From: Bolinopsis microptera
Lineage: Eukaryota; Ctenophora; Tentaculata; Lobata; Bolinopsidae
Direction: 5' to 3'
NCBI RefSeq assembly: GCF_026151205.1
Contig: NC_087073.1
Location: 14,713,837-14,777,836, forward strand
DNA length: 64,000 bases
Shown here: piece by piece, positions 12,104 through 63,873 of the stretch
Position numbering within the stretch: position 1 is the stretch's first letter
Layout: each line of letters starts with the position of its first letter
Translations under genes and position numbers: made by a program
The notes under the pieces: model-generated
What the model saw: only the letters and a program-made list of their open reading frames with translations
What the model was told of the DNA's origin: nothing
Database searches by the model: none

Positions 12104-12165
12104 GCCGAGCTCGATCATGAGATATCATTACAGACCAACAGAAACGTTCAAGTATTGCAGACAAA

Positions 12166-12787
12166 ATGAAGATCCTATTCGTCCTATTCCTTGTCGGAGC
12201 TACTCTGGCTGAAGATCCTGTCTGCAAAGATAGTCATCCAGCCTGCCACGTTGAATGGTGCAAAGAAGGGGACTACATTGCTGAGGAGTACTGCCAGAAG
12301 ACATGTGGTGCATGCAGAGCTCGACCGGGATCCCGGCGCAGCCGGTCCCGGTCCCGGCCGGGATTTTGTTTTTAGCCGGGATTTTAGCCGGGATTTTTCC
12401 AAAATAAAGTCGGTTTAAGAGCGTATATTTGAGCCCAAATTTCACGAACCTGTGAACATTTTCCGAAAAGTTTTACTACAACAGTGCTCTACAGTGTTTC
12501 TTAATAGTTAGATCATTTCACTTTCTCGTCGCCAAAAGTTTATCGAAAATTCAACTTTCAAGTCTTATGTGAAATGTTTATGTTACATGATCAAAATTCT
12601 ATGAATTTTGATCAATGGTAGTTGGCAAATTTCAAGTCAAACAAAATTTACTAATGTTCAAAATTAATTATATGTTCAACTGTTCACTTCATGAGTAACA
12701 AATTACAAAATGTTAGAAGAAAGCTGAAGTCCGAACAAACTTAGAAATATTCAAGAGTCAGGGGCTCTCTATCTATCTCAGAGATAA

Positions 12788-33900: not shown

Positions 33901-36900
33901 CTTCCGAGATCGCATGACCAGGGGGAAGCCTCGAGTCCAAAATTGTGTACCGAGGGGTAATTTTTTAAGTCAACATTTTTCAATGTTATATTTTCTAAAT
34001 TTTTCAGGTTTTCAATGGCATAAAATGGCATAAAATGTCATAAAATGGCATAAAATGGCATAAAATGGAGACTATTTCTATGGAGAAAATGAAAAAACCT
34101 ATGAGTAATTCTCCATTTTCTCCATTTATGCCATTGGCCCCCCCCCCATTTGACATTTCTGTCCAATTTTTGCATTGTAGGCCGTAGGGGTTCCTAAAAG
34201 GAGGTTAGATATCTCCGATACAACATATCCAGAGACATCTAAATTATTTCGGGAATTGAATTATACCCTTCAAAGCTTAAACGTCTGATATTTAGATTAT
34301 ATCTGGAATTTAGCTAGTAGACTGGTTACATATATATACTTATGGATATGGTACGTACCACTTACACCTGCTTCTCCTTGAATGGGAACCAGACACGAGG
34401 GCGGAGGACACAAGAGCGGAAGACACGAGGGCCTAGGACACAAGGGCGGCACTGTCCTGAAAGAGTGGACACGAGGGCGAAACCAAACACCGTCCCAAAT
34501 AATAAACTTGTAACTGGTAACATCATAGAATTGGATTTTAACTTTTGTTTATATGCGTCAACCTACTTTAATAACTTACAACACACGTACCGTCGGCACA
34601 CACGTCGCACGTACAGGGATGTCCCCACATACAGTTGTGTAAATATAATATGAGATATCATCGCAACAAGAAATCATGCACTAGTCTAACCAAACACATT
34701 AAAAACCCGCGTAATCCTATGTTTTGCTAGTAAAGTCTTATCAGATGTAATTAATTAGAAGACTAAGAGCCCGAAGAGCTTCTAACAGAAGTTTGCAGTA
34801 CCACTAAAACTCCAACAGCAAACATGTGTTCGACCAACCAGGAGGTTTCTGATGGGGTTCACCGACATGGAAAATTATTGAAATAGAGCGCAAAGTTTAA
34901 AAAGGTCTTCATCTGTCCAGATCGGTCTCTCGAGGAGCAAGCTGAAAGAAGGATAGGTACTGATCAGCGCTTTGAGGAAGAAGATAGCATAAGAGCTTCA
35001 AAGACATCATTACTTGATTAATGAAAAGATTCAATGCAGAGAGAATAGTTCTCTGAAAAGCCTAAAATACTTTCTTCGTCTCAATACCTCACTTAGGGAC
35101 CCCCGCATAAAACTCAGAAATTACATAGCAGTGACGAGTTTTATGAACCAGCCAAGTACCGACGCTTTATGTACAAAGTAGCTGTTAGGCTTTCATAAAA
35201 TTCGATAATTGCTGTCTTGTGTAACTGTGTCTTGTGTAACTGAAAGAAGTAAGAACGACTTAACGTTACCTATACTACCAGTGAAATGTGAGTTCACATA
35301 AAAACGGAGGAAATTTACGGCAAGTTATGCGAATCCACAATCAAATTTTGCCTACGAGTCCATCGCATTTTTGATGTACAAATTTGATGGATCATTGTTG
35401 TGGGAATTGGGAAAATTCTCATTTCCAAAAATGTGAGCGAATATAAATCCTGGCTCTGTCGATGATAATTCTAACGATGGATCAGCCTTAAACTGTGTTA
35501 CTGTCGGTCACAAAAATCTTAGAATTTTGATTGAGAAATACTTGATAGACACTTTGGTTCATAGCCATAACATTTTGAACTTAATTCACTGCCACACCGC
35601 GCCGATTGTAAGCAGTCACCTTGATCTGACTGATCCAGATTCTACTGCACCAGATCTGACGGATCTGGTCGTATTGTCTCGGCGCTCGCATCAAAGTAAG
35701 ACAATCTTTATGAATTTTGCTTCAGTATAAACAATTCTGATACAGAATACACAACATCAAATTCCCCAATTTGCCAGCAAAATGGTAGTCGTGCTTCGAT
35801 TCTCAAACTTAAATGAGAATCGTGACCATCTCAAAATCAAAACAGCGCTAAATCGCACGTTTAACCTTATGCTCCATAATATGCATGTACGGCGCGTATC
35901 TACCTGCCAATAAAAATTGATCCAAACATATCAAAAATACTTCTTAACGTACAATTTTCCAGTTAAGTGGAATTATTTTGATATGAGCCAATTAAAAGCT
36001 AAAAACAAAGAAGCTAAAACAAAGATTTTAATCAAGGTATGTCAGGAGAAATAGTTCTACCGAACATGACAGTTTTAAGAGAAGAAATTATTATGTCCCC
36101 CGATGTCTTGCTACTGGTAACATTGTCTGATACTTTGTTAGATATCCACAGTTTAAAACGCTTCATCCGGCAATAGTAGAGAAGAGGATTCAAAGCGGCG
36201 TTGAAGACCGTGAACAGAACCTTGGCAATCACCCAACTGTAGAGTCTCATGAAGTCGTTAGTAAAGAAGGGTTCTGGGTAGGTGTAACCGAAACACAAGG
36301 AAATTGCGTATAGGGCGGTTATGATGAAAAAGGGTAGGTTGCAGAGCAGAAATAGTCCTGTGAATAACGAAACTGTCACTGCAGCTCTTTTCAAATGCCC
36401 CTCCTTCGCTCGTCCGTTTTCCAAATGTTTATTGTGGAACATCTTGACTGTCATAATGACAAAACTGATGAAAGAAATAACAGCTGGAAGTCCAACTTTT
36501 GTCGACCACAGAGCCTCTATAACGATGCCCCAGTTAGGATCTTCAGCACTGAAGTAACAGAAACAACTGTCTGAATCATAATACAGATCTGAAATACCTG
36601 ACTCTACAGAATCTATAAGTATCAATCCAGTTACATAAACGTTCATAGCCATGATGCAAGTCCGTTTACTGATCCTATAAAACGGCATCACAATAGCTAA
36701 CGTCCTCGACACGCTCATCAGCGTCACCAGGAACATGGAAAACTGCTGGAGAAAAGAGAAGAGCAACTTCCAGGCAGCACAGAGAGCCACGACATTAAAT
36801 AATTGGGGGTACCTTCCTGTCACCAGCACTAGTATTACTGGGATGTGAGCTAAACAGGTAGCTGTATCCACCACACATATACCGATATAGAGACTGGTTG

Positions 36901-37412
36901 CAAGATCTCTCTTCCTCTTGGAGAGAAAATATTTGAGAGCGAAGATGTTGGCTGGAACCCCAAATAGGGTGCAGGTTATCATTAGGGCAGCTATGAGGTA
37001 GTCCCATACGGGGGTGTAGTCTTTTCCAAGATCTGTTATGCTGATGTGAGGTCGGTAGGTTGTGCTGTCTGCTTCCGACATTTGTTTAGAGCTAAAATTG
37101 TACTGTTACAGTTGAGTTCACGGAAACTGGTAATTTGTAATATTATATGCATCAGTGCAGCGTTAGAAAGTTATAACAAAACATAATAATATGAACACAA
37201 AAAGACGTTTAGATGTATTTCATTAGTAATAAAGTAACCAAGCAACTCTGCTATTGTATTTATACAACATTATCTCGAAGCTCATAAAAAAGAAGCATTT
37301 ATGACTGTGGTGACCTCATCGGTAGTTGTCTGTACTCTTCAGAATGATGAGGTCATCATTTCAATGATGCAATGTTAGGATTGCGCTCATTTGAAGACAC
37401 GTGAGAATTCAA

Positions 37413-37444
<32 letters not shown>

Positions 37445-38738
37445 CAACCTCATTTTACCTCATTTTACCTCATCCCAATTTTGCCTTTTTTGGCTGGCCT
37501 CATGAGGTAAAATGAGGTAAATCTCGGCAAAAATTTTAACAGGTAAAATTCTCTAAATCGTCAATTTAGTCACGAAGGAGTATGGAAGGAGTTCTAAATG
37601 TGTGCTCCTCTAATATAAACAGTAGGAAATGGTTAACTTTAGTCGAGGTCTCAGGTCTCTACAATGTCGGGAAGTTCCTGCAGGAATTTGCGCATTGCGC
37701 TTGAAGCGCAAGATTCACAGCGCCAAAAGCGAAGGTCGTAGAGACATGAGACCTTGACTAAAGTTAACCATTTCATACCATTGCTACAATATGAGAATAT
37801 AAAAAGGAAGGTTTTCTTGGAGACCTGGATCGAGCATCAAAATAGTGTACATTGCTACTGTCATTGTCAAGACTCAAGAATAAGAGGGTCTAGTTGTGGG
37901 ATTATGCTGGATAACAGATATGATAAGTGGTAACATCCTACAAAGAATGTTAGCTTACTAAGGAATTTTCCTCTTACCGAATCATACAAGAAGTTAACTT
38001 AGTTCCTCCTAGTCCTAAGCATTATCTTGTTTCAGAGGGAATGAGTGATTTAAAAAGATGAGGCCGCAGAGTCAGTTGTGAAGAAGGCATTTGTACTCTG
38101 TAATTTCTAAGCTAATTTTTTTCGATATTTTTAGCTATTTACTGATCTTGTCTGACGTATCAGCAAGAGATCACTGGACCTCGTTAGTTGTTAGTCATGT
38201 TATGCTGATCCAGTTAGTGACGAGCTATGTAGTAATCATTCGACCTCATTTAATACTGATCCTATCAATGACGCGCTATGAAGTAATCAGTGGATCTCGT
38301 CAATGCTCATCCTGTCCGGACTGTCACTGACGAGTTATGAAGAAATAAATGAAGACCTCATTAATTCCCTTGTTCCAAGAAGATATTCCTCTGGTAACAG
38401 CCCCTTCTGAATATAATATGAAGATTCGAAAACCTAGTCTACCTTAATTGGAACTTGCTGACTGCATTGGAAAATGGAGAACAATCGAGAAATGATAATC
38501 AGTGCCAGGATATAATCAAAGTTGAATTTGGAATCCAAGGAAAACCTTCCTTTTTTATATTATCATATTGTGCGTTAGTTTGGTGTGAAGTATTATGTTT
38601 AAAAAAAATTAACAGTGTTAAACTAAATTGATATCAGTTAAAGATGATATATTTTAACAGGTAAAATTCATATAATTGACGATTAAGAGCTGTAGGAGTG
38701 TGTTCAGGACTCTGAAAGTGGCATACTATTATAACAAT

Positions 38739-38770
<32 letters not shown>

Positions 38771-41700
38771 GTCATGTCCGTCTATGTCCGCCTATGTCCT
38801 GTCCTTTTTGGATTCTATGAGACAACGGACGTGTTTTTTGGGACATTGGCGGACACGGACGGACATTGGCGGACTCGGACGGACATTGGCGGACTCGGAC
38901 GGACATTGGCGGACTCGGACGGACATTGGCGGACCCGGACGGACATTGGCGGACTTGGATGGACATTGGTGGACATTAGCGGACTTTGGTGGACATTAGC
39001 GGACAAACATTTTGAGGACTGAAGAGTACTGAAGAGTACTGAGGAGGATGGCTGAGAAGGATGGCTGAGGAGGATGGCTGAGGAAGATGACTGAGGAGGA
39101 TGACTGAGGAGGATGACTGAGAGGGAGGAGAAGGATCAGGAAGACCCAGGAGGAGGAGGAGGAGGAGGACCCAGAAGGAAGACCTAGGAGGAGGAGGAGG
39201 AGAACTGAGGAGGATGACTGAGGAGGAGGAGGACTCAGGAGGAGGACTGAGGAGGACTGAGAAGGAGGAGGACTGAGGAGGATGGCTGAGGAGGATGGCT
39301 GAGGAGGATGACTGAGAGGGAGGAGGAGGAGGAAGAGGAGGAAGAGGACTGAGGAGGAGGAGGAGAAGGACTGAGGAGGAGAAGGAGGACCCAGGAGGAG
39401 GAGGACCCAGGAAAAGGCCCCAGGAGGAGGAGGAGGACCGGGGAGGAGGAGAACTGTTGAGGACTGATGAGGAGGACTGAGGACGAGGAGGAGGACTGAG
39501 GAGGACTGAGGAGGACTGAGGAGGAGGACTGACGATGACTGAGAAGGAGGAGGACTGAGGAGTACTGAGGAGGATGGCTGAGGAGGATGGCTGGGGAGGA
39601 TGGCTGAGGAGGATGACTGAGGAGGATGACTGAGAGGGAGGAGGAGGAGGACTCAGGAGGAGGACTCAGAAGGAAGAGGAGGAGGACTCAGGAGGAGGAC
39701 TCAGGAGGAGGACTTAGGAGAAATGAGAAGGAGGACTGAGGAGAACTGAGGAGGAGGAGGAGGAGGAGGAGGACTGAATAGGAGGAGGAGAAGGAGGGGG
39801 ACTGGGAGAGGACTGGGGAAGAGGAGGACTGATGAGAAGGATGAGGAGGAGGACCCAGGAGGAGGAGGACTGAGGACCGAGGAGGAAGAGGAGGAGGATG
39901 AAGAGGAGGAGGAGGACCCAGGAGGAGGAGGACTGAGGAGGAGGACTGAGGAGGACTGAGGAGGATGGCTGAGGAGGATGACTGAGAGGGAAGAGGAGGA
40001 GGAGGAGGAGGAGGACTGAGAAGGAGGAGGACGAGGAGTGAATAGGAGGAGGAGAAGGGGACTGGGGGAGGACTGAGGAGGAGGATGGAGGACTGAGGAG
40101 AAGGATGAGGAGGAGGACTGAGGAGGACTGAAGACTGAGGAGGAAGAGGAGGAGGATGAAGAGGAGGAGAAGAACCCAGGAGGAGGACCCAGAAGGAGGA
40201 CTGGGGAGGAGGAGGAGGACTGGGGAGGAGGAGGACTGTTGAGGAGGACTGAGGACGAGGAGGAGGAGTAGGAGGAGGACTGAGGAGGGGAGGAGGAAGA
40301 GGACTGAGGAAGGTCAGGAAGACCCAGGGGGAGGAGGAGGAAGAGTAGGAGGAGGAAGCATCTAAATGTTATTTCCATTTTTGTCCGTTTTTGTCCATTT
40401 TTGTCCGTTTTTGTCCGCTCTATTTTTTGTCCGTTTTGAAAATATAGGGTACCGAACGGACAAAAAACATGATCCCCCTATAACAGCAAAATTGAACATT
40501 TTATTTAGCAATTTAGGTGTCCATTAATGTCCGCCTATGTCCGCCTATGTCCGCCTATGTCCGTCTATGTCCACCTATGTCCGCCTATGTCCGCCTATGT
40601 CCGTCTATGTCCGCCTATGTCCGCCTATGTCCTGTCCTTTTTGAATTCTATGAGACAAGCGGACATAGACGGACGTGACACCCCCCCCCCCAACAATGGT
40701 ATGAAATGGTTAACTTTAGTCAAGGTCTCATGTCTCTACGACCTTTGCTTTTGGCGCTGTGAATCTTGCGCTTCAGCGCAATGCGCAAATTCCTGCAGGA
40801 ACTTCCCGACATTGTAGAGACCTGAGACCTCGACTAAAGTTAACCATTTCCTACTGTTTATATTAGAGGAGCACACATTTAGAACTCCTTCCATACTCCT
40901 TCGTGACTAAATTGACGATTTAGAGAATTTAACCTGTTAAAAATTGGTGAAAATATGGGCGTGGCCCAAGTTATACGAGACCGTAGAGACACAAAAAATG
41001 TTTTGGTTGTTCCCGACCCTATTATAGAGCAACTAATTAGAGGTGATATCTAATTATTTAAACGCAAGGTGGTTTTGTGAACCGCCCTATATTCTACAGC
41101 GAATCATGAACATTGAACATGTACATAAGAACTTAGAATTGTATGAAGTATGAGTTTATATGAGTAATTTATTATAAAATTACCTTCCACTATGCAATTT
41201 CGACTAAATTCATGTAGATATCCAATCCAGTTCCATGCACAACTGTTGTTTACATTTGGTCTAGTTAGACACAATTTGTTTCAGAGTGACTCGATAATCG
41301 CAATATCAAATTAAGATATTATTTAAATGGTCCATGTCATGCAATGCGGAAATATCCCCATAAATTGGCAACTGCCAAAGTGACACTAAAGTTATTGCTA
41401 ATTCCTTTACAAAACTTAGCAAGTGCTATTTACAATATCCTAATGGATCATGGAAATTGAAATGTTCAATTTTCTTTTCATAAATAATAATTATAATGCG
41501 AAGTTTTATTTACCCCAAGTTTGGAGAGTAAGTAGGTTAAACTGGAAATGCCCCTTCCCAGGGACCACATCACCCCTAATAAACCATTAAATATCATGGG
41601 AGACCATGCACAGCCTCGAATTATAGTATAATGACTTCGAATAAACCTTTTTTGTCTCTAAAAAAAGGCTTAGAAAACTAGATTTATTTACCTCATTTTA

Positions 41701-47700: not shown

Positions 47701-50700
47701 TTAAATTATCAAAATTTTGATTTTTTAACTATGTATATTAGCTTATTACTCTGTCAGATTTGAGGTTGCTGAGTAAAACTTCAACGATTTGTACGCATCG
47801 GAACTGACGTTCGGTAGGGTCAAAAGGAGTTGATATTAGTTATTATGAAGGTTAAACCATTGAATAGTTAACCACCACAATTTACAGACCCTCCTAGCTT
47901 TACTGACAATAATCTCACAAACAATTCCATCAAACTGTAATATCAAACTTATTAAGATCTACAATAATATCACCAACCAACTTTTCATATAAAAGTTATC
48001 CTACTGGGTCACGTAGGAGCTCAAAAGAGTGGCCATAACTGCGATGTTTTTATAAATTATAACTTACCGACTGGCAACAAATGGTCTTAAGATCTAGGAG
48101 ATGTCCAGTGAAGCATATGAAATAGTCGTTATGATCACTGAAATTGGTGATTTAATTAACAATTATCAGTAGTCGGTACTACAATAGAAGCTTGACAGAA
48201 GAGGGACTCTATCACAGCTATTAACGAAGAGTACACGGCAATTTGAGGTGATCAAGTTCCAGTTATACGTAGAGCAGTCCTGTACATCCGGTAGTAGTAC
48301 AGAAGAACTATTTGTAGATATTGGTGATTATATTAGTAATTATACTGGTGATTATTATTATTGTCAGTTTGACAGATGACACGTTGTGGTCAATGGTTTT
48401 GCCGCAAAATCATATAGAAATAGTACATATTATTATGAATAGTTTTATAACGCTTCAGAACTATCTTTTTTCAATAAGCTTCACTAAATTTCACTAAATT
48501 TCACTAAATTTCATTAAATTTCACTATGAGCGACTAACACTTCTTTACTTGATTATTTACTGGATATGGGCTATGGCATATGGACGAGAAGTAGACGCGA
48601 AACTACAAAATAGAAATGTTGATGAATTTAGATTATTCACCAGTAGAGAACTACCCAAACAAATTCTGTCAGAGGAGATCAAACACAGTAGTTTGACATC
48701 GGCAACAAAGAAAAAGATAATGGCGACGAAATGCGAGTAAGAAAAAATGGATTGTATACAAGTGAATTTAAAACAGCAGAGCGGTAGTGAATGGTTAGGT
48801 CACGTGAATTCTCAGTCACGTTCATTAGTCAGCCTAGAACTGCCCTGTAATACTAAAGCTGCAAGGTTGCACTTGGAGTGGACCAAGGCTTAATTGGGGT
48901 CACAAAAGATTGCGTGATGCTGATCATACATTTAAACAATCTTACGACGATTAGGTGAGGTTAACAGGCACCCTAATCTTTGTTGTTGCTTTATAATTAA
49001 TAATAATTAATTATAATTTGCAGTTATGATTATGAAGGATATTAACGAGTTGTCATACTCGACTCCATGACATACTTCAAAGTAAATAATTTAAACGATC
49101 ATATTTCCTAACAATTACAAATGATGTTTTCTTTCAGCAAGAAGGCAGTGGATGGAAATATAGACCTTTTAGAAGGGGTTTACTGGTGTTTATATATTAA
49201 TATTATGTTCCTCATTTTCCTCACAACAAACGGGAAAGAAACAAAGAAATATCAGCTCATTCTCAGAAATATTGTCCAGTCGAGAAGTTCGCAACTTAAT
49301 CATACTTCAATAATCTGAATATCGAAACAAGATTAGGTCTTATATTCCGTGTAATAAGATCGTTGGTCATTAGTACTCTAAATACCACCATTTCTGGTAA
49401 ATAAATGCACATGGTTTTACCTGTGCTACCTGGCTCTGACGCAGACGGGAGGAACATAATTGAACACAACTTTCTTTCAGATGGCTCCTAAATTTATCAG
49501 AGAGCATAGAAGGGACGGTTTGAGGAAAACATACCATTGACTACGCAAGTACGCACCACTAGTATTTACTTATTTAGCAACGCTGAGAAACTGTTAACAC
49601 ATGTAATAGCTACGGTTTTGAGACCAGACACGCTAGTTAGATAATCGATAAATCCTGAAAATGAGTTGGAAATATATCACTTTCAGCTAATGGAATGTTC
49701 TAGATCTGAACCCAGAGGAAGATGCTTTTGAGTCTGGAATATTCTGAGCCTCCTTATTTACTTGTTACATCTACGTGAAATGAGATGAAGAGTCCAGCTT
49801 GCGCAACTCTAATGAGTAGCGGTGGTCACCACCACCACGTATTGCATTCAAATTAACTAAAAATCTTTACTTTTTGAAGCAGTGCAGCGTGCGGCTGCAA
49901 TCAAGATTGCGTCAAACCAGAAATTCATGAAATTTTCTGCAAATATTCACCGAACATTACCGTCTCAATCATAGAAGATTATGTCATTAAAATAACAATG
50001 CAAACTTTATAAATGGTTAAGGGTAAGCTTGTCCACTGCCCTGTCCAGGCACCAAGAAAAATCTGAGAAATCAATATTTAATAAAACTTCTTTGACGCAA
50101 TTAGCTTAAGCATGAAGGAAGTTAACATTGCTGCCAAAAGAAGTTGACAGACAACTCTCTAAAAGCTGCTCAATGAGGGGCTACTCTGAATTAAGTCATC
50201 CTTCCACTGTCAACATAAAATCTGAGGAAGTAGACTCTACAGTTACTTCCTTAGATTTCAATAAATACCAATAAAATAGAAACCGACAAAATAAGAGTTG
50301 GGTGATTAGCGAGACTGTTTCTTGAAACATTAAGCAAATTATCAAATCACAGTGATTAAATGGTCAATACTAGATGTTGAACATTAGCTGCCCAATAGAA
50401 TGACTAGATTCATATATTCTGATGGTTAAGCATTTTAATTTATGATAGCTGGCAACTCTCACCAGCCATGCAATATATTACTTGTGAGCATTTTGTGATC
50501 GCCAATTCCTCAACTAAGACAGAGACACACTTACTTAGGTACTTTAGTTACAGAGGAAATTAGAAATTTAGTTACAGGATCTACAGAGGAAATAATCAGA
50601 AATTTAGTTCCAGGTTCTACAGAAGAAATAATTAGAAATTTAGTTACAGGTTCTACAGAGGAAATAATTAGAAATTTAGTTACAGGTTCTACAGAAGAAA

Positions 50701-53700
50701 TAATTAGAAATTTAGTTACAGGTTCTACAGAGGAAATTAGAAATTTAGTTACAGGTTCTACAGAGGAAGTGATTAGAAATTTAGTTACAGGTTCTACAGA
50801 AGAAATAATTAGAAATTTAGTTACAGGTTCTACAGAAGAAATAATTAGAAATTTAGTTACAGGTTCTACAGAAGAAATAATTAGAAATTTAGTTACAGGT
50901 TCTACAGAGGAAATTAGAAATTTAGTTACAGGTTCTACAGAGGAAGTGATTAGAAATTTAGTTACAGGTTCTACAGAAGAAATAATTAGAAATTTAGTTA
51001 CAGGTTCTACAGAAGAAATAATTAGAAATTTAGTTACAGGTTCTACAGAAGAAATAATTAGAAATTTAGTTACAGGTTCTACAGAAGAAATAATTAGAAA
51101 TTTAGTTCCAGGCTCTACAGAGGAAATCAGAAATTTAGTTACAGGCTTTACAGAGGAAATAATTAGAAATTTAGTTACAGGTTCTACAGAAGAAATAATT
51201 AGAAATTTAGTTACAGGCTCTACAGAGGAAGTAATTAGAAATTTAGTATCAATGCACCGTGTTCCTTTTTGATAATTTAGTTTAATTTTAGCTAAGATGA
51301 GAAATTATCATCTAGTAGGCCATAGCTTTTGGGAGGACCCATGAAAAGTTTATATGTAAATCAGAAGTGAGTTCTTTAGTCTTTACTGCGAAATTTGAAA
51401 GCGAGTGTACAAAATATCATTGAGATTGTAATTACCTAGTATAAAAGACGTTTTATTAGCATAGACTTTTCCCAAGCTTACAATTAAAACAATTCCTTGT
51501 ACTTGTAGCCTGTAGGCGCCAAATGATATAAAAATATTGGCTATCATAATTCGTATCCTGCAAAAGATCCGAATGTGAAGAGAAAAGTGGGTTAATAAAC
51601 AAAGAACCCAATTTTCTGTCAATCAACCACGGAATTAAATCGATTGTGAAAAAGTCGATGATCTTGAAATTAGAAAGTGGGCGCCAAATAATAATTCTTC
51701 ATTATAAATCATCCGTAATTCTACCTAGTCTGAATAGCAAACAATAGAACCGCAGCCCCCACCAGGGTCCAGGGGTGGAGCTAGGGGGGCGCAGCCCCCC
51801 GGAAAAATTTTGCGAAATAGGGTGTTTTAGACGACATTTGGCATTAAATAAATTTGTAGGACAGCAATAAACTGGGATTGAAAAGAATAAAGTACTCACG
51901 TAAATTTGGTAACTTCACAACAGCAATCTGCATTCTCCAATCAGAATTTACGACTTACTCAGGCCTCATCGTCGTAAGATTTTGACATTTCCTACGGTCT
52001 GGGGGACACTATTGACTATTTATAGAAGTCTTCTAGAATGTTCGCTTGGATGTTATGACAGATATTTACTAATCCACAGTTCAAATCTTTGACACTGACT
52101 GCAGTCATAAACACAGACCAGTTACCAGGCGGCCATGGGGACTAGGGGGCTTATCTTTTTTCTGGGGTTCAATTTTTTCGGGGGGGGGGGGGGGGGGGGG
52201 GCTGCAGCCCCCTAGAGACAAGTTCAGGGTTGGGTTCAGGGTTGGGGTTAGGGTTTGGGTGGCGCCCAGATATACTGAGTTAGAATCAAATTGTGTAATG
52301 TTACAAGTTTATTACTTCCTATAAGAGGGTGTTTGGTTCCCCCTCAGGCCTCGTGTTCATGTTCAAGTGCGTATCATGTGATGATTAAATAAACCAAGAC
52401 TTAATTGATACATGTTTCGTATCCCGCGCGCGAAAAGTGGCATGCAACGTATGTCAAAGACTTAATATTGTGAAATTTCATTATTTATTAATATTATCAG
52501 TATGGAGAGGGGAGAGAAATCGCCGCGCGTTATGATATTATTAGTATCCTTACAGTGGGTGGGCGACAATTGACCCCCCGACAATTGACCACCCGACAAT
52601 TGACCTCCTGACAATTGACCCTAACCCTAACCCTAGCCCAAACTTTAACCCTAACCCTAACCCAAACCCTAATTTAACCCTAACCCTAACCTTGTCGGGG
52701 GTCAATTGTCGTACTGAGCCCTAGATTTCGCGACAATTGACCCCAGTGTAATTACATAGGGGGTCATTTGCTGTGGGGTCAATTGTCGGGGGTCAATTGT
52801 CGGGGGTCACTTGTTGGGGGGTCAATTGTCGCGGTACGTTCACAGTTACTATTGTAGCTTAAGATTCGACATTTGTATTGCTTGTATTTCTTGTACTATA
52901 CTGATTGCAGAAACAAAACAGCATAGAATTATAGCACACAAGCATTTCGATGGACTTATTATATTTAATCAACAGCATTTTTTGTGTCTGAACTCAGTTT
53001 GCATAATATGGAATGAAACAGGGAATTTATACTTCAATCAGATCGACAATAGATATTGGCTATTGCAAATACAACATATATCCAGAGACATCTAAAATAT
53101 TTCGGGAATTGAATTATACCTTTCAAAGCTTAAACGTCTGCTGTTCAGATTATATCTGGAATTTAGCTGGGCTGGCTACATCTATACTTATTCCACGTAC
53201 CAGTTGCACCTGCTTCTCCCTGAATATCACATACTGATACTTATTACTCGAACTCATAGCCATGATAAATTATAACTGGTGATGCAGTCCACAAGTCGGA
53301 GAAATTCTACGAGCAAAATGATAGAATGGAAACGAAGCAAAATCAAAAGTTAAAAGCTCTCTGAAATGTTTTACCATCCCACATGGAACTCTAAAGTTAA
53401 TGAACTTTATTGTAGAAAACAATGTTGGCTCACTTGATCCTTTATTTAGCAGAGGAAAAGTTAACTAACTGGAGATTCAAATTAGCAACGAACCAGCTGC
53501 AGCAAACAGGTTTAATATCACGCCTTACCGGCGACTTATCAGAACTTAAATAAAATTATCAGATAGAAGATATTGTAAGGATCAAGTTCTTGTATGATAT
53601 AGATCTCTTGCACGATATAGATCTCTTGCACGATATAGATCTCATAAATCATTATATATAGTTCAAGGGAATTTACTGTCAAGTACAATACAGCGATGAT

Positions 53701-59700: not shown

Positions 59701-62700
59701 AAACTGTAAAGTATAGGCACTTCCGTAGAGGAGACTTAGTGGGTGGTATTCGCACTCAACTATGTGTATACCATTGTATAAGAGTAGAAACTGAGAAGAC
59801 ATTCTGCATGAAATGCAGCTTTATCTGAAGAATTCTAGAAGACTTTAGAAGCACTAAATTCGTTAGAATTCACCCAAAATTCAAAAAGGTGTTTCTCAGA
59901 CTGACCTGTATCTTGGTATCCTCTGAACTGGACCCAACATGTGTTGTGAGATTTTGAGCTTCTGGCAATGTTCATCATCTGCCTGGAATATGATCAGTAT
60001 TGTAACACAACATCTACATATAATATATAATATATATTATATATAATAATATATATTATATACTAGCAGGAACCCGTCTAACCCCAAAGTGGTGTCAAGA
60101 GACAGCAATATTTAGGCGACTGTATTGGCACATGTAAAATGTAAATGTTTTATACCCTTAACTTTATATTCGTTTATTTAATTAACACAACACAGAAATT
60201 GTATCGCTGTGAACAAACTGAACATCAATGTAAGATGGTGCAAATAACAGGTCGTATTAAAGTGTAATCAGGCGCTAACATCTCCAGACACGTTAGGTGC
60301 CCGTTTAATCTGGTTTAATTAGCACAAGTAAGACTGGATTATATTATAAAACTAGGTTATATTATTACTGATGAGTGATGACTTAACGACAACACACGCT
60401 CTTTTATAGTATAATACTGATATGTTATATATTGTGTTAGGTTAATGGAGTACACGAATATGCTGAATTTATCCAACATTTATTAGAACTTACTACACAC
60501 TAGACGCCAGACGGAATGAGTGCTAACAGGTACGAGATAATTTAATTTTCTTACAAGATAGTAAATTAGTTTATTTCAGGCCGTTTTCAAGATAACTCTA
60601 CCCTAACTTCAAGGAGAACTTACAAATAAATAGTTGCCTAAATTTGTAATGTAACATTCACTATAATTATACTCAACAAGGTTCAAATCCTTGATCGAAA
60701 TCGTATACATGCCTACCTCTAAATCTTTGACGATCTGAGAGAAATTCTCGTTTTTAGCGGACATCTCATTAAGGGTCTTAATGGCATTCTCAAACTTGGC
60801 CATGTAGTCGGTATAAAGCTGGAAGTAGGGAGCTATGGACTTCATTATATCTCCTATCCTCGGACGTAACTGCCTGGGTGGAATGAATAATCACGCTAGA
60901 AAACCTATTTATAATACATTTAGTTCAAATTTCGGGATTTGTCATTTTATTCCCAGTTTTCTAAGACCGCTATTTTTATCCACATATCCGTTGGTTTAAG
61001 GCTTATTCAGTAATTCGATACACCATAATGTAAACAACTTAATTATGTATTATGTAAGCACTAAAGCTATGAGTAGAACTTTATACATAAACGGAAAGTC
61101 AAAACAGAAAGTGTAAGATATCACATTTCGATTTACGAGATAATTTAAGCTTTTTGCAACCCACCAATTTTCAATTCTATCTTTGAGCCTATCTCGTAAA
61201 ACCACGTGAAGATTCTGTAACTCGTGGGTGTTTATGAAGATTTCTCTGATAGTCTTGTCGGGGAACATGTACACCCCTTCATCCTGAACAGTGAAATTTA
61301 ATTTACTTCAAAGCAAATATTAAATAATATATTAGTCAAGGAGTGACGCAATGGTTAGTGTGATTTAACGCATTTGAAATAAATTGTTCTGTCAAATTTG
61401 CGGAGTGTTTTGCGGAGTGTTTGCGGAGTGTTTGCGGAGTGTTTTGCGGAGTGTTTGCGGAGTGTTTGGGGCTGCTTGTTCCCAGTACAATGTGACGTTA
61501 GTTGAAATCATGCTTCAGAGGTTGAGGAGGTGAGCAACAGTTGAGGTGATCTAACTCTGAGCTAACACTGTATTATCACATATCACATAATGGAGAGATA
61601 ATGCTTTGAATATGATCTAAGATATTATACTGAGTACACTAATACGTTGGACAAGCTCCAATCATTTGAAAGCAACTGTGTGCTTATGTCTAATGTCTAT
61701 GAAATTCAGTAGAGTTGAGTATATTTTATCTATTGAAATGATATTGAATTTTAGCATCCAAGTCACAAGTAAAAAAGCTATCGTGATTTAATAACTCACA
61801 TCTTTTAATCTATTTCTGAAAGTTTCGTTGATTAAAGTTAAAGTTGAATAGTAGGCTTCCTCTGTCGTATATAACTCTTCGGCAATTTTAAACCTGAAAT
61901 TAATTATTAAAAATGAAATTTACTGGAAACAGTTATATAATTTGAATGTTCAATGGACATAGCCCATGGAATGGTAAAGACATTTGGTTTTGAATTATAT
62001 TTATAATAGTTCTGGAATTTTACCTCCTTCTTTTGTTTTTCTCTTGGGGCGTCTCTTCTCTTCGTTTGGTCATTTCTTCCTCGTAGGTTGCGTCGTGTTC
62101 TTCTTCCCCAACATCGCTTTCCTGGTCTGACGGAGTTTTCATGTTAGTAAATATAATACTGTTACGTTACCTTAGAATACATTATTTTATTTGAATCCTA
62201 AGTTATAATAGCCGGCAATTTGAGGGGCACTAGTGAAAAGGTATGAACCAGAAAGGTGGCTGATTGGTTAATGAGAAGTACTGGAATACTGAGTAGTGGA
62301 GGAGTGAACTAACCTTGTGTATCACACTCAGAAACTGTGTGAACTAACCTTGTGTATCACACTCAGAAACTGTGTGAACTAACCTTGTGTATCACACTCA
62401 GAAACTATGTGAACTAACCTTGTGTATCACACTCAGAAACTGTGTGAACTAACCTTGTGTATCACACTCAGAAACTGTGTGAACTAACCTTGTGTATCAC
62501 ACTCAGAAACTATGTGAACTAACCTTGTGTATCACACTCAGAAACTATGTGAACTAACCTTGTGTATCACACTCAGAAACTATGTGAACTAACCTTTGTA
62601 TCACACTCAGAAACTGTATGAACTAATCTTGTGTATCACACTCAGAAACTGTGTGAACTAACCTTGTGTATCACACTCGGAGACTATGGGAGCCTCGTCC

Positions 62701-63873
62701 TCACTGGACGATATGTCAGAGAGAGCAGAAGATCTGTTACTTTCTGGGACACCTGACGGTTGAGAAACACGTCAGATTGTGTGTGTTGAGAAACACGTCA
62801 AATAGTACTAAAAGTAAGAGTTCGTTAAGTAACCAAAATTTATTTAACCTGATGACGATTAAAAAGAAACAATTTAACTTTAAAGCTAGTGAAGAGTATT
62901 AAAATGTACAACCTGCTAGTGAAAGACAACAAACGAAGCACGAGATAACTATGTTAGTATCAAAGTCCACAGTTCAATCTGTATCACATATGTAACTGAA
63001 CACTAAAATATCAATGTATAACTATGCGCTAAGCGGAAAAAGTGTTGAAAACAAAGACAAGATAAAATAAGCGCAGTGATTGAAGCTGCCAGGGATAGCA
63101 GAACAAAACAACGCCTAGTGACAACACGTAACTGGCCTAACTTACTAAGTCGATTATCTGTTGAGATGTTGGAGACCGTAGCTAGAGGGTTGGCCCTGTG
63201 GTCAGTGGGTGTGAGTACTGGGTGTTTCCGTAATACCTGGCTCTTCCCATCCGCTCCGGCTGAACTCCTGTTTCTTGTCTCTGGTGTTTCTGTTGTGCTG
63301 TTTCCGTTGATTTTAGGGGGAGCTGTGACTGAGATCTTTTTGGGTTTTTGGGATACTGGCGGGCTTGCTTGTCCCTGGCCTGAGTGAGTTGGTACACAAT
63401 TCAATATCGACCGGAGAAAGACAAGAAAGCGCGAATTAAACATATCACAGATAACAAATGGGACAAATATTTCACATTTTGTGTCACACGGCTCAAAATT
63501 TATCAAATTTCAGTACACATACATGTCGGTGAAATGTTATACGCCTGCAGCGACCAGCGACTCAAGTTCAATTTTTGCATACTACACTTACTCTCGAACA
63601 TCATCCTGATGTTTTTGAATTTGGAGCCAGTTCCATCACCGTCAGATATGTCTGCCATGGCTGAGAGTTTGGGTTTCGGCTTGAGTTTTGGGCGTTGGTT
63701 TGAGGTGTACTTTTTGAATATTTCTTGTTTCGTTTGTGATTTAAACTCGAGCTTCTGTCTTAAAGCTGAAACTTTGTGGCTGAATTGTTCGTATGACTTC
63801 TCAGTAACAACTTTTCTTTTTTCAATTGGTGCGTCAGAGGTTTTGTCACCACTTTCACTTTCGGTCTCAATAC
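21906..63873 (-). CDS. FGD-type RhoGEF: DH, PH, FYVE, PH (5' end outside the window)
   Basis: This is a guanine exchange factor of the FGD family, which activates Cdc42-class GTPases at PI3P membranes. Nineteen exons, high to low: 63592-63873, 63146-63379, 62663-62752, 62024-62126, 61800-61893, 61165-61283, 60717-60873, 59906-59982, 58783-58906, 58469-58624, 56894-56977, 56486-56568, 26459-26553, 26187-26296, 24110-24238, 23297-23413, 23049-23129, 22817-22912 and 21906-22007 (TGA). All junctions have GT/AG and agreeing phase, and the sum leaves 776 residues. Residues 1-235 are polar and disordered. DH is about 238-430 ([24 protein letters not shown]). PH1 is about 455-552 ([17 protein letters not shown]). 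FYVE is about 572-640 ([25 protein letters not shown]). PH2 is about 684-775 ([26 protein letters not shown]). The domain order is diagnostic; the FGD subtype is not assignable by eye. Confidence 0.93.
22044..22202. mobile_element. MITE with three internal hairpins, in the last FGD intron
   Basis: The ends TTACATCACTGCTTATAATG and its inverse are about 29 bp long with few mismatches. Between them lie three consecutive hairpins: 22076-22100 (TTTTCACAAC stem), 22102-22137 (TTTTATCCAAC stem) and 22139-22172 (GTTATATCCC stem). There is no coding capacity. Confidence 0.75.
22345..22537. mobile_element. MITE with 27 bp inverted ends, in the last FGD intron
   Basis: GTCGCTGAGATGTTGCTAAT at the left is matched by its inverse at the right over about 27 bp with no mismatch seen. 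The interior is about 140 bp and non-coding. The target duplication is not clear. Confidence 0.65.
24736..25701 (+). CDS. Beta-1,3-galactosyltransferase-like enzyme (GT31)
   Basis: A type II Golgi membrane enzyme of 321 residues in one exon. It has a short cytoplasmic tail, a transmembrane anchor at about residues 15-33, a stem, and a family GT31 catalytic domain from about 75. Visible hallmarks are RAAIRSTWA (91-99), FILGDT (121-126), the metal-binding triad in KTDDDIFVN (DDD 181-183), CSGGGYILS (224-232) and the EDAYTG acid motif (254-259), which corresponds to the ED-V-G motif. It should transfer galactose or GlcNAc in beta-1,3 linkage; the acceptor is unknown. It lies wholly within the FGD intron 24239-26186 on the opposite strand, between the two exons of the FYVE domain. 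AATAAA signals occur at 25829 and 25927. It appears intact. Confidence 0.93.
   Translation: MTIFGNSHSLAPWIYKLQLSLLIVTGIMVFLNLDKLTVITGGSLEYSNSEAPDERFKIIEYEKLLEEVDQKKEKYFMVVAIPTMPGYSAKRAAIRSTWANASRWANLKDTEEHFKRIKIMFILGDTQFETESEEFKKEMKEYNDMYIINGLAEGRIVLKYKVLWGLKRSLTFDYDYFVKTDDDIFVNLPLMIMSLMASSRDRLYTGSCMHVYGGWGNYPRWLYCSGGGYILSRDVVEEIQKLPERVHHAPFRPEDAYTGWLVHCLDEVNDFKVKVFTQGLLKVGSYKCGPFTHTWFYHHVMYSNMEKFFQKIDKNIYDLCP
27177..27184 (+). promoter_or_regulatory. TATA box of the two-exon gene
   Basis: TATAAATA lies 82 bp before the next upstream-most usable ATG at 27266, in a GC-richer context (GGCCTGG-TATAAATA-ACC). It has good form and distance for a pol II core promoter. Confidence 0.6.
27266..28062 (+). 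CDS. Uncharacterised two-exon gene nested in the FGD intron
   Basis: Exon 1 (27266-27526, 87 codons) ends at AAG/GTAAGT. Exon 2 (27658-28062) follows a CTTCAG acceptor in phase 0 and ends at TAG, giving 221 residues. The protein is basic and helical, with a tail of Ser/Glu clusters (about residues 185-210). The central part ([13 protein letters not shown], later [19 protein letters not shown] and [10 protein letters not shown]) faintly recalls a family of uncharacterised invertebrate proteins with a VW-A, LFDIA and D-FL pattern that often occur in many copies. I infer no function. The TATA box and clean intron argue for a real gene. The unspliced frame stops 25 codons into the intron. Confidence 0.7.
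28063..28793. other. Spacer between two nested genes
   Basis: No gene is seen. A 25 bp direct repeat (ACTTTACTTATTGTAAACAC) lies at 28253-28291. The region should hold the promoter of the BTB gene, but no clear core element is visible. Confidence 0.4.
28794..30455 (+). CDS. BTB/BACK-like protein with unusual C-terminal domain
   Basis: A single-exon protein of 553 residues. Residues about 20-110 resemble a divergent BTB/POZ domain ([20 protein letters not shown], then a [10 protein letters not shown] strand-helix step and [14 protein letters not shown]). About 115-230 looks like a helical BACK region. The middle (230-380) is helical. The C-terminal part (about 395-553) is rich in beta strands with conserved-looking Cys and Trp ([29 protein letters not shown]) and I cannot match it to a known fold. 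BTB/BACK proteins usually act as adaptors for Cullin-3 ubiquitin ligases, and the C-terminal domain would then be the substrate binder. That role is inference. The start ATG follows AAAGAACAAG, a fair context. The frame is intact. Confidence 0.75.
   Translation: MASLIRNIQVPMNFGLEYLGSPSHGNLKFILKDEFLLANSAIMSLNSPVIKKITIELFQTEILVEEFSKTAIECFLEASYSGALTNISKFNFQDLNKMVHVFEVKWLIERCFEYFQGLTDSVKEDNFDEQLFLFDQAMFVLEKLKKRQFIDVVIKKFTSLATCTQYFATNYLSDISSCSTKNLDVIMELTAIADQEHIIVEALVNNLEKNECTLGQSSRYMIEKLNYKVCSSVHEPVYQRMFKKFEELEDPSTEDFRLIMRAMQHYNKALKEMKDSISFAVLPNLFHGFQQLNDINDFEELTTFLTESPLVKNSYIFLDAIYIWLFEKAVQMNIPFVSISDDFVEKFADIMQSKGWKPVELEYIENKMGPYFGGLTDKIHHNTSLVTDNRVGLKVNCIPSTREYTPEELFARNHDIKFKFKQESITNCSKEGDCGFILRITAATEKLDDSFNIRLVVDQNLYPDDVHFHKESLMLAENIHFTFDVTFEGVTNSARPITWHGRPCRDGTQQFWCWGAERFYKKDEGTMPPTYPLKWASFHGSNKKIRPVVYKLG
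31047..32105 (-). CDS. Class A G protein-coupled receptor, copy 1
   Basis: An intronless receptor of 352 residues with seven hydrophobic segments. Visible class A landmarks are N45 in GVPAN (TM1), a D in TM2 (AVDTTT), C101 at the top of TM3 with C173/C175 in the second outer loop, CNLPFF (248-253, in place of CWLP) in TM6 and NPLLYY (299-304) in TM7. The DRY motif of TM3 is replaced by SRT (125-127), a form I know from large cnidarian receptor expansions. There is one N-glycosylation site near the N terminus. The ligand is unknown. It lies inside the 29.9 kb FGD intron on the same strand as the host gene and 3.9 kb from its near twin. Confidence 0.92.
   Translation of the reverse strand: MSEADNTTYRPHISITDLGKDYTPVWDYLIAALMITCTLFGVPANIVALKYFLSKKKRDLATSLYIGICAVDTTTCLAHIPVILVLVTGRYPQLFNFVALCAAWKFIFSFLQQFSMFLVTLMSVSRTLAIVRPFYLISRRTCIMAMNVYIIGLIVLDSVESGISDLYYDSDSCFCYLSAGDPNWRIVIEALWSTKVGLPAVISFISFVIMIVKMFHNKHLENGRAKDQGHLKRAAVTVSLFTGLFLLCNLPFFIIAALYAISLCFGYTYPEPFFTNDFMRLYSWVIAKVLFTVFNAALNPLLYYCRMKRFKMWISNKVSHDHVVVSMVNASLKAAMLSRINVPSGHICEERE
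32684..32987. mobile_element. PIF/Harbinger-like MITE
   Basis: The ends CCCCCCAGTTCCATAGCGGA and its exact inverse continue for about 45 bp (through ATTATTAGACGGAG). TTA flanks both sides (32681-32683 and 32988-32990), the 3 bp duplication typical of PIF/Harbinger. The interior of about 210 bp is rich in CTCCGG words. The frame at 32781-33014 is accidental. Confidence 0.75.
33218..34147. mobile_element. hAT-like element with poly-G ends
   Basis: The ends are 11 G and 10 C, then CAATGGCATAAA-type tandem repeats. An exact 8 bp duplication ATTTGACA (33210-33217 and 34148-34155) flanks it. The interior holds two copies of a module with GGGGAGGCCTGCCTTCCGAG (33640-33720 and 33880-33960), which is also present, inverted, in the element at 57055-58174. 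Confidence 0.8.
34386..36031. other. Gene-free stretch between the receptor copies
   Basis: A short GGACACGAGGGCGG-type minisatellite lies at about 34390-34480. No gene is supported; the small frame at 35527-35730 has no features. Confidence 0.4.
36032..37081 (-). CDS. Class A G protein-coupled receptor, copy 2
   Basis: 349 residues, intronless and almost identical to the receptor at 31047-32105 over residues 1-315. Differences are scattered single changes, most of them conservative, plus a two-residue deletion in the third inner loop (AKEG against AKDQG) and an unrelated last 20-25 residues after ISNKVS. The same SRT, CNLPFF and NPLLYY motifs are present. Homology ends about 20 bp upstream of the ATG, so the duplicated unit is little more than the coding exon. 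Both copies are open, so both may function; the divergent tail could change arrestin or kinase contact (inference). Confidence 0.92.
   Translation of the reverse strand: MSEADSTTYRPHISITDLGKDYTPVWDYLIAALMITCTLFGVPANIFALKYFLSKRKRDLATSLYIGICVVDTATCLAHIPVILVLVTGRYPQLFNVVALCAAWKLLFSFLQQFSMFLVTLMSVSRTLAIVMPFYRISKRTCIMAMNVYVTGLILIDSVESGISDLYYDSDSCFCYFSAEDPNWGIVIEALWSTKVGLPAVISFISFVIMTVKMFHNKHLENGRAKEGHLKRAAVTVSLFTGLFLLCNLPFFIITALYAISLCFGYTYPEPFFTNDFMRLYSWVIAKVLFTVFNAALNPLLYYCRMKRFKLWISNKVSDNVTSSKTSGDIIISSLKTVMFGRTISPDIP
37536..37795. repeat. Left arm of a 250 bp inverted repeat
   Basis: This segment includes ATGGTTAACTTTAGTCGAGG, CCTGCAGGAATTTGCGCATT and GAGACCTTGACTAAAGTTAA. It is nearly identical, inverted, to 40697-40945. 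It is itself a near palindrome. Confidence 0.8.
37788..38571. mobile_element. TIR element within the composite
   Basis: CAATATGAGAATATAAAAAG...GGAAGGTTTTC and its inverse GAAAACCTTCC...ATCATATTG lie at the two ends. The interior has four diverged repeats of about 70 bp (38080-38370) around GACGAGCTATGAAGTAATCA. No coding frame is visible. Confidence 0.55.
38741..40691. mobile_element. hAT-like element with poly-G ends and internal satellites
   Basis: The ends are poly-G followed by TGTCATGTCCGTCTATGTCC and the inverse, then poly-C. An exact 8 bp duplication AACAATGG (38733-38740 and 40692-40699) flanks it. The interior is almost all satellite: GGACATTGGCGGACTCGGAC units (38843-39003), a purine-only tract (39006-40370) and TGTCCGCCTA units (40520-40630). 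Confidence 0.8.
39006..40370. repeat. 1.36 kb purine-only (GAGGA/ACTGAGGAGGA) tract
   Basis: The plus strand is built of GAGGAGGACTGAGGAGGATGG-like words with very few pyrimidines other than the single CT of ACTGAGG. Long frames on either strand (for example the Ser/Pro-rich one at 39701-40378 minus) come from the repeat and are not genes. Confidence 0.9.
40697..40945. repeat. Right arm of the 250 bp inverted repeat
   Basis: Inverse of 37536-37795 with few differences; see that entry. Confidence 0.8.
41781..44540. other. Gene-free intronic stretch
   Basis: No gene, transposon end or RNA gene is recognised. A short frame at 43886-44134 opens with ATG but has no domain or splice support. Confidence 0.35.
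44552..44928. repeat. Hexanucleotide microsatellite (GACAGT/AACAGT)n
   Basis: About 63 copies of RACAGT, with A/G interruptions grouped in the first half and pure GACAGT in the second. Frames reading Val-Thr or Cys-His repeats are artefacts of it. Confidence 0.95.
45080..50500. other. Gene-poor intronic stretch
   Basis: The sequence is AT-rich. A partial family A MITE piece (GATTACGGAGGGGGATCTAA) occurs near 45950. A TTTCACTAAA repeat lies at 48480-48530. The only candidate gene is listed separately at 48549-49318. Confidence 0.35.
48549..49318 (+). CDS. Weak candidate two-exon small gene
   Basis: A frame of 63 codons (48549-48740) could be spliced at GA/GTAAGA (48735) to a CTTTCAG acceptor (49139), where the frame goes on to a TGA at 49316. 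The joined reading would have a charged first half and a hydrophobic segment (about 20 residues) in the second. It has no recognised domain and no promoter. The start codon is not certain. It may be chance. Confidence 0.2.
50540..51272 (+). repeat. 33/36 bp tandem repeat with an open frame of 12-residue units
   Basis: About 20 units of AGAAATTTAGTTACAGGTTC-TACAGAAGAAATAATT, most of 36 bp, some 33 bp. Every length change is a multiple of three, so one frame ([12 protein letters not shown]) stays open for over 740 bp, from about 50500 to a TGA at 51272. No ATG opens it. It could be an internal exon of an unknown gene or only an intronic minisatellite. Confidence 0.8.
51640..53225. repeat. Duplicated segment, copy 2, with different insertions
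   Basis: Related in order and orientation to 32560-34385 (see there). Between the matching pieces are hAT-like debris (51768-52205, with CAGGGGTGGAGC and GCAGCCCCC words and a 28 G run) and the telomere-repeat element at 52563-52834. Confidence 0.6.
52563..52834. mobile_element. Inverted GCGACAATTGACC repeats around a telomeric repeat
   Basis: GCGACAATTGACCCCCC (52563-52579) and its inverse (52818-52834) form the ends. CGACAATTGACC units are repeated three to four times inside each side. The centre (52617-52692) is degenerate (CCCTAA)n, the animal telomere repeat. TTAGGG-like words also occur at 52222-52262. Confidence 0.6.
53586..53643. repeat. Short 22 bp tandem repeat
   Basis: Three copies of GATATAGATCTCTTGCAC occur here. 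No other feature is seen between 53230 and 53767. Confidence 0.8.
53776..54681. mobile_element. hAT-like non-autonomous element 3
   Basis: The ends CAGTGGTCGACCGGGG and CCCCCGGTCGACCACTG are inverted. An exact 8 bp duplication GTGCAGAT (53768-53775 and 54682-54689) flanks it. Both ends are made of CCCCGGCC words. The middle carries a further inverted pair GTGAACCGAGCC / TTGGTTCAC (54254-54415), possibly an older insertion. It has no transposase. Confidence 0.9.
54690..56485. other. Gene-free end of the large intron
   Basis: Small repeats (GTTATTACCAACA three times near 54915-54955; TC run at 55265-55285) are the only structure seen. Confidence 0.4.
57055..58174. mobile_element. hAT-like element with amplified internal module, in an FGD intron
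   Basis: The ends CAGGGGTGTAGGAA and TTCCTACACCCCTG are perfect inverses. An exact 8 bp duplication ACTCAACT (57047-57054 and 58175-58182) flanks it. A module of about 270 bp (start near 57190, again near 57440, partly near 57690) contains GGAAGGCAGGCCTCCCCTTC and GTACGTATCGTGAATGACTC. The 219-residue frame through it (57229-57888) only reflects the repeats. The same module occurs at 33600-33960. Confidence 0.88.
60001..60066. repeat. AT/TA dinucleotide tract
   Basis: An (ATATATT)n-type palindromic simple repeat in the FGD intron upstream of exon 59906-59982. Confidence 0.9.
61399..61470. repeat. 12-14 bp tandem repeat GCGGAGTGTTT
   Basis: Six copies of TGCGGAGTGTTT with one- or two-base length changes lie in the FGD intron 61284-61799. 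Confidence 0.85.
62306..62668. repeat. 35 bp minisatellite carrying copies of an FGD splice donor
   Basis: About ten units of 35 bp (GAACTAACCTTGTGTATCAC + ACTCAGAAACTGTGT on the plus strand). On the transcribed minus strand each unit contains GAGTGTGATACACAAG/GTTAGT, the last 16 bases of exon 62663-62752 and its donor. The unit nearest the exon is the real donor; the others follow it inside the intron. The unit is not a multiple of three. Confidence 0.9.

What the first reader, a model, noticed from the sequence alone, without database searches (positions are those of the whole stretch)
62306..62752. Minisatellite that repeats a 5' splice site about ten times
The 35 bp unit is made of the last 16 bases of an FGD exon, its GTTAGT donor and the next few intron bases. 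Tandem growth has placed roughly ten decoy donors directly downstream of the true one. Since 35 is not divisible by three, use of successive decoys would shift the frame in a cycle of three, so copy number variation could change isoforms or act as a donor trap. I do not know of a described case of this kind.
Basis: partly seen in the sequence, partly recalled or inferred. Interest (0 to 1): 0.78.

Follow-up and report, generated by a model that had tools for sequence, protein, structure and literature searches.

The report
Repeated splice donor in jelly gene
In a comb jelly gene, a 35-letter stretch spanning the end of an exon and the start of its intron has been copied about ten times in a row, leaving nine extra copies of the splice signal that most likely sit unused, because using any of them would cut the protein short.

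Summary
The array is real: 62304-62685, minus strand, 35 bp x 10.9, the only copy found in a ctenophore genome (Bolinopsis microptera). It sits at the end of exon 62663-62752 of an FGD4-like RhoGEF gene. The unit is 25 exonic nt (16 exact; two synonymous differences shared by all units) plus 10 intronic nt. Eleven donor positions exist: the true one (62662), nine GT copies and one dead copy (AT at 62627). The nine equal the true donor in predicted U1 pairing, and predicted folding hides none.

(1) Frame cycling has no coding effect: in the native frame the intron begins GGT TAG, so every downstream donor gives the same truncation (...SECDTQG*). The public predicted protein (isoform X2) uses the first donor. 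[quoted passage not shown] title and citing text seen, paper not held).

Best reading: passive tandem duplication across a 5' splice site in a minisatellite-rich genome, with rare non-productive decoy splicing at most. Unsettled: decoy use in RNA, copy-number variation, and any genome-wide excess of donor-bearing arrays.

The parts
62304..62685 (-). 35 bp minisatellite, 10.9 copies, spanning the 5' splice site of the FGD4-like gene
   Evidence: TRF score 701, 96% matches; units listed
62663..62752 (-). Exon E3 (90 nt, phase 1 at both ends); its last 25 nt correspond to the exonic part of the unit
   Evidence: phase-consistent gene model; present in public protein P0001
62661..62662 (-). True donor (CAAG|GTTAGT), first of 11 donor positions
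   Evidence: junction SECDTQ/DQESD in P0001 equals 62662->62127
62626..62627 (-). Dead decoy donor: AT instead of GT, U1 pairing -0.8 kcal/mol
62312..62593 (-). Nine GT decoy donors, first bases at 62593, 62558, 62523, 62488, 62453, 62418, 62383, 62348, 62313; each -6.7 kcal/mol with U1, as the true donor
62127..62662 (-). Host intron (536 nt): array at its 5' end, unique sequence and TACTAAC branch-like motif (62143-62149) at its 3' end
   Evidence: branch-point role inferred from sequence
62024..62126 (-). Next exon E4 (103 nt)
   Evidence: in P0001
58469..63873 (-). Exons E1-E10 of the FGD4-like RhoGEF gene modelled in the window (E0 lies outside, window-equivalent 64305-65126; further 3' exons were not modelled)
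   Evidence: open joined frame of 752 aa including E0; Pfam RhoGEF

Best explanation
A 35 bp segment made of the last 25 nt of exon 3 and the first 10 nt of its intron in a ctenophore FGD4-like gene duplicated in tandem and expanded to about ten copies, as minisatellites often do in this genome. The first, exon-adjacent donor is the one used for functional mRNA. The copies lie in the intron and are removed with it. If a decoy is used, the retained sequence adds GGT TAG in the native frame, so the product is a truncated and probably unstable transcript that lacks the RhoGEF domain. Shown: the array, its composition, the gene frame, the stop, equal predicted U1 pairing, and first-donor use in a public predicted protein. 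Inferred: the duplication history, the low or absent use of decoys, transcript decay, and lack of function.
For: The unit matches exon end plus intron start. The phase-consistent frame of 752 aa has no stop. The public protein carries the first-donor junction. All 10 extended products truncate at the same codon. The decoy part shows changes that would not be kept under constraint: nearest decoy AT, one 1-nt deletion. The two exon/unit differences shared by all units are synonymous. In the two longer folding windows the true donor is slightly more open than every GT decoy. The sampled genome is minisatellite-rich: 37 arrays (period 10-100, >=4 copies) covering 14,027 bp of 200,000 bp. Tandem triples of a strong donor octamer have 6149 overlapping matches genome-wide, so donor-bearing arrays are not unusual here.
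Against: Nine of ten decoys keep a GT donor and match the true donor in predicted U1 pairing. In predicted folding none is hidden, and in the shortest window most are at least as open as the true donor, so local sequence gives at best a weak reason for first-donor use. Homogenisation of the array could explain the intact GTs. P0001 is one predicted isoform of a three-member cluster; the other members were not seen. No RNA reads were examined.
Confidence: 0.75

Rival explanations
1. Donor trap or dosage rheostat: the decoys compete with the true donor, a fraction of transcripts is extended and ends at the TAG, and more copies mean less functional FGD4-like protein.
For: Nine decoys equal in predicted U1 pairing and not hidden in predicted folding; every decoy product carries the same early stop, 64-344 nt upstream of the next junction for the nine GT decoys.
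Against: The one annotated isoform seen uses the first donor. No RNA or population data. Whether this animal degrades such transcripts was not tested (UPF1 search unanswered).
Confidence: 0.15
2. Isoform generator: successive decoys add peptide in three frames.
For: 35 is not a multiple of 3, and the extra lengths do cycle mod 3.
Against: In the native frame all 10 extended products stop at the second codon after the junction. The frame is fixed by the 752 aa joined ORF and the public protein.
Confidence: 0.02
3. Assembly or polishing artefact in copy number: the array exists but its length or uniformity is not accurate.
For: The published B. microptera assembly used wtdbg on PacBio reads with pilon short-read polishing (PMC10232365, passages), which can blur tandem repeats (inference). 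That the held assembly is this one is inferred.
Against: The array is only 382 bp, below long-read length, and units differ (C/T variants, an AT donor, a 34 bp unit).
Confidence: 0.08

Closest known systems
Human 6-16 (IFI6/G1P3) minisatellite, Turri, Cuin & Porter 1995 (Nucleic Acids Res 23:1854; title in reference lists; paper not held)
   Same: A minisatellite supplying multiple splice donor sites in one transcript; a citing paper says two downstream repeat units serve as donors, giving three mRNA species (PMC4526556, passage).
   Different: There downstream donors are used. Recalled, not from a call: unit about 12 bp, a multiple of three, and polymorphic. Here the unit is 35 bp, decoy products hit a stop at once, and decoy use is unshown.
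Intron gain by tandem duplication across an intron-exon boundary, potato RdRp gene (PMC4974935, abstract)
   Same: Tandem duplication of a segment spanning a splice boundary, duplicating splice signals.
   Different: That case is one duplication over the border of intron 1 and exon 2, creating a new intron; here about ten copies of a 5' boundary with no new intron shown.
Intronic VNTR of human ABCA7 (PMC5954066, abstract)
   Same: An intronic minisatellite whose length correlates with splicing and expression.
   Different: The effect there is skipping of exon 19; the abstract says nothing of repeated donors.
CeRep25B minisatellite near alternatively spliced regions of C. elegans (PMC4039745, abstract)
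   Same: A minisatellite carrying splicing-related motifs.
   Different: Over-represented near alternative splicing regions, with regulatory motifs; not a single array of donors.

Membership tests
Minisatellite across a 5' splice site (IFI6 6-16 kind; features from title, citing passage and recall) | tandem units of minisatellite size at an exon end | tested here: met
   35 bp x 10.9 at 62304-62685; exon ends at 62663
Minisatellite across a 5' splice site (IFI6 6-16 kind; features from title, citing passage and recall) | each unit carries a usable-looking donor | tested here: met
   10 of 11 positions GT, all ten -6.7 kcal/mol with U1; one AT
Minisatellite across a 5' splice site (IFI6 6-16 kind; features from title, citing passage and recall) | downstream units used as donors in mRNA | not testable with these tools
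   no RNA data; the one public predicted isoform seen uses the first donor
Minisatellite across a 5' splice site (IFI6 6-16 kind; features from title, citing passage and recall) | copy number varies between individuals | not testable with these tools
   one assembly only
FGD (FYVE, RhoGEF and PH) gene family | RhoGEF (DH) domain with FYVE and PH domains | tested here: met
   PF00621 in the model; PF01363 and PF00169 precomputed for P0001 (their names FYVE and PH are recalled); best solved match FGD6 (9jb3_A) E 2.6e-26
Intron gained by AGGT tandem duplication | new intron lying between duplicated exonic copies | tested here: not met
   the array runs on into unique intron sequence with its own acceptor at 62127; the junction is 62662->62127

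The most novel reading that the evidence does not exclude
This genome holds hundreds of independent minisatellites in which every unit carries a strong 5' splice site, because such arrays arise or persist preferentially at donors. At FGD4-like the array acts as a copy-number-dependent poison-donor switch that tunes gene dosage. Donor triples have 6149 overlapping matches, with 7 arrays of by-eye unrelated units in the first 2.51 Mb of C1 as listed, although single donor octamers are hardly in excess (33,595 against 29,206 for the motif read backwards).
Probability: 0.08. Interest if true: 0.7.

Novelty: new member of a known kind. Interest (0 to 1): 0.35.

Why it matters
It is a clean natural case of ten near-identical 5' splice sites in a row with equal predicted U1 pairing, where any choice but the first destroys the product. 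If RNA shows strict first-donor use, position rather than strength decides, a point on which splicing rules can be tested directly. If decoys are used, array length would be a simple genetic dial for dosage.

Tried and rejected
Frame-cycling isoforms: rejected, because every extended product stops at the same codon. RNA structure hiding the decoys: rejected; the 9-nt donor window is unpaired with probability 0.16-0.31 at the 11 positions (window 80) against a mean of 0.075 for GU sites of the region. With windows 150 and 240 the values are 0.10-0.26 and 0.09-0.27 against means of 0.047 and 0.038; there the true donor (0.187, 0.203) is a little above every GT decoy (at most 0.179, 0.174). Dispersed-element origin: not supported; the matches found to the array and unit all lie in this locus.

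Genome-wide donor bias: not established. Hit counts (overlapping matches, both strands) for triples of an 8-mer at 12-42 nt gaps: donor AGGTDAGT 6149, read backwards 297; GAGTDGTA 2281, backwards 1185; GATGDTGA 1365, backwards 11950; AGTGDGAT 1840, backwards 2044. The donor ranks 2nd of 8, and hits are dominated by long arrays. My count of distinct arrays among the first places listed (capped lists, possibly incomplete): donor 7 in 2.51 Mb; the three shuffles 3 in 1.70, 3 in 13.6 and 14 in 44.3 Mb (the last includes this array). In 281 kb held, the donor octamer gave 1 array (this one); 4.5% of 400 shuffled motifs did as well or better. Against a generic donor matrix typed from recall, 20 other arrays (period 20-70) had mean percentile 0.53, this array 0.987; Kolmogorov-Smirnov against uniform for all 21, p = 0.06.

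Relatives: ctenophore orthologues covering the exon were not found. A search with residues 270-512 returned only the gene itself. Two partial proteins with unnamed eukprot labels were found: P0085 starts inside the RhoGEF domain; P0121 has no RhoGEF domain listed and was not read. Papers with nothing on tandem repeats: PMC12221973 and PMC11184263 (passages).

Full report
What is there. The window is part of a 264.65 Mb assembly (G000, contig C2). The organism is Bolinopsis microptera, a lobate ctenophore: the protein identical to this gene carries that name and lies on a contig of 23,028,209 bases, the length of C2. On the minus strand, 62304-62685 holds 10.9 copies of a 35 bp unit at 96% match, TRF score 701. 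A similarity search of the assembly returned this place alone, and 10 of 10 matches of the unit with up to 3 mismatches lie in it.

The gene. Splice-site reading gives an open, phase-consistent joined frame of 752 aa over eleven exons, ten of them in the window (an off-by-one at two exon starts was corrected on the way). It contains a RhoGEF domain (PF00621, E 4.7e-40), its best solved relative is FGD6, and the public match is 'FYVE, RhoGEF and PH domain-containing protein 4-like isoform X2' at 100% identity over the 313 residues searched. Exon E3 is 62663-62752 (90 nt, phase 1 at both ends); the intron runs 62662-62127 (536 nt) to exon E4 (62126-62024).

The unit. From the donor side each typical unit reads GTTAGTTCAC followed by 25 nt that match the exon's last 25 nt: the last 16 exactly, and beyond them two differences shared by all ten full units, GTC/GTT and TCC/TCT, both synonymous. 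Six of the ten units differ from the exon at one further base (ATA/ACA). Of 11 donor positions ten are GT and one (62627, next to the true donor) is AT; the unit that starts there is 34 bp. The array ends in unique intron sequence after the last donor's ten intron bases. This is the anatomy of a tandem duplication that took 25 exonic and 10 intronic bases, with the most changed unit near the exon-side edge.

What the decoys would do. Spliced in silico from each of the 11 positions, only 62662 leaves the frame open; the other ten, the AT site included, all end ...EAPIVSECDTQG*, because the intron continues CAA GGT TAG in the native frame. The extra lengths of the nine GT decoys are 69, 104, 139, 174, 209, 244, 279, 314 and 349 nt. 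Their remainders do cycle, but the stop precedes any effect. The stop lies 64-344 nt before the next junction for those nine. By the vertebrate rule (established knowledge, not tested here) such transcripts would be degraded.

Which donor is used. The public predicted protein reads SECDTQ|DQESD, the junction 62662->62127. It is one isoform of a cluster of three members and its RNA support was not seen. Predicted U1 pairing is -6.7 kcal/mol for the true donor and for nine of nine GT decoys, -0.8 for the AT copy, and -5.1 to -9.3 for the nine other donors modelled in the window. The U1 5' end used (AUACUUACCUG) is present in four of four U1 loci fetched, of at least ten over the cut-off. Predicted folding hides no donor; in the two longer folding windows the true donor is slightly more open than every GT decoy, in the shortest it is not. 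So strength does not explain first-donor use and accessibility hardly does; position or exon definition would have to. This is inference.

Is it unusual here? In 200 kb of spaced sample, 37 arrays (period 10-100, at least 4 copies) cover 14,027 bp, 7%. Triples of a strong donor octamer at minisatellite spacing have 6149 overlapping matches (2952 + 3197) genome-wide; seven distinct arrays among the first places listed have units that look unrelated by eye. Controls vary widely: 297, 2281, 1185, 1365, 11950, 1840 and 2044 hits, so the donor ranks 2nd of 8 and I claim no proven excess. Single octamers are nearly balanced with their backwards form (33,595 against 29,206). In the 281 kb held, 20 other arrays show no clear tilt to donors (mean percentile 0.53; with this array p = 0.06).

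Literature. [quoted passage not shown] PMC4526556 (passage) says that two downstream repeat units serve as splice donors and give three mRNA species of IFI6. The paper itself is not held. Related: an intronic VNTR affecting ABCA7 splicing (abstract), a boundary-crossing tandem duplication creating an intron in potato (abstract), and a C. elegans minisatellite near alternative splicing regions (abstract). I saw no other donor minisatellite in the listings (8 of 9 papers listed; 15 of 80; 2 of 2; 10 of 10; 12 of 209), and no ctenophore case in those (17 of 17; 10 of 453).

Verdict. The proposed isoform mechanism is excluded by the reading frame, and the kind of object is known. What stays open is whether the nine GT decoys are ever used and whether array length varies; existing Iso-Seq data could answer the first at once.

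Noticed in passing
13157-14058: Array of period about 150/294 bp with an open frame on the + strand (340 aa) of repeated cysteine-rich ShK-like modules (VCKDTHPACHVEWCKEGDYIAEEYCQKTCGAC); a single module with a signal-peptide-like start lies at 12121-12375. Domain name recalled, not searched.
   Followed up: no
50549-51247: 36 bp minisatellite, about 19 copies, open on both strands (257 aa each); its period is a multiple of three.
   Followed up: no
31047-32183 and 36032-37105: Two open frames on the - strand (378 and 357 aa), similar by eye, that look like rhodopsin-type receptors, a local duplication (family recalled, not searched).
   Followed up: no
39034-40356: Purine-rich GAGGAGGACT-type repeat of about 1.3 kb with strong GC skew (0.486 in 38001-40000); similar repeats appear in sampled locus L031.
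   Followed up: no
L041-L044: At least ten U1 snRNA loci over the Rfam cut-off in this genome, two of them convergent neighbours about 0.56 kb apart on C5.
   Followed up: partly
G000:C1:934854-935516: Array whose typical 31 bp unit ends in an acceptor-like stretch directly followed by a donor (CTTTATCAG|GTTAGT), like a chain of zero-length exons.
   Followed up: no
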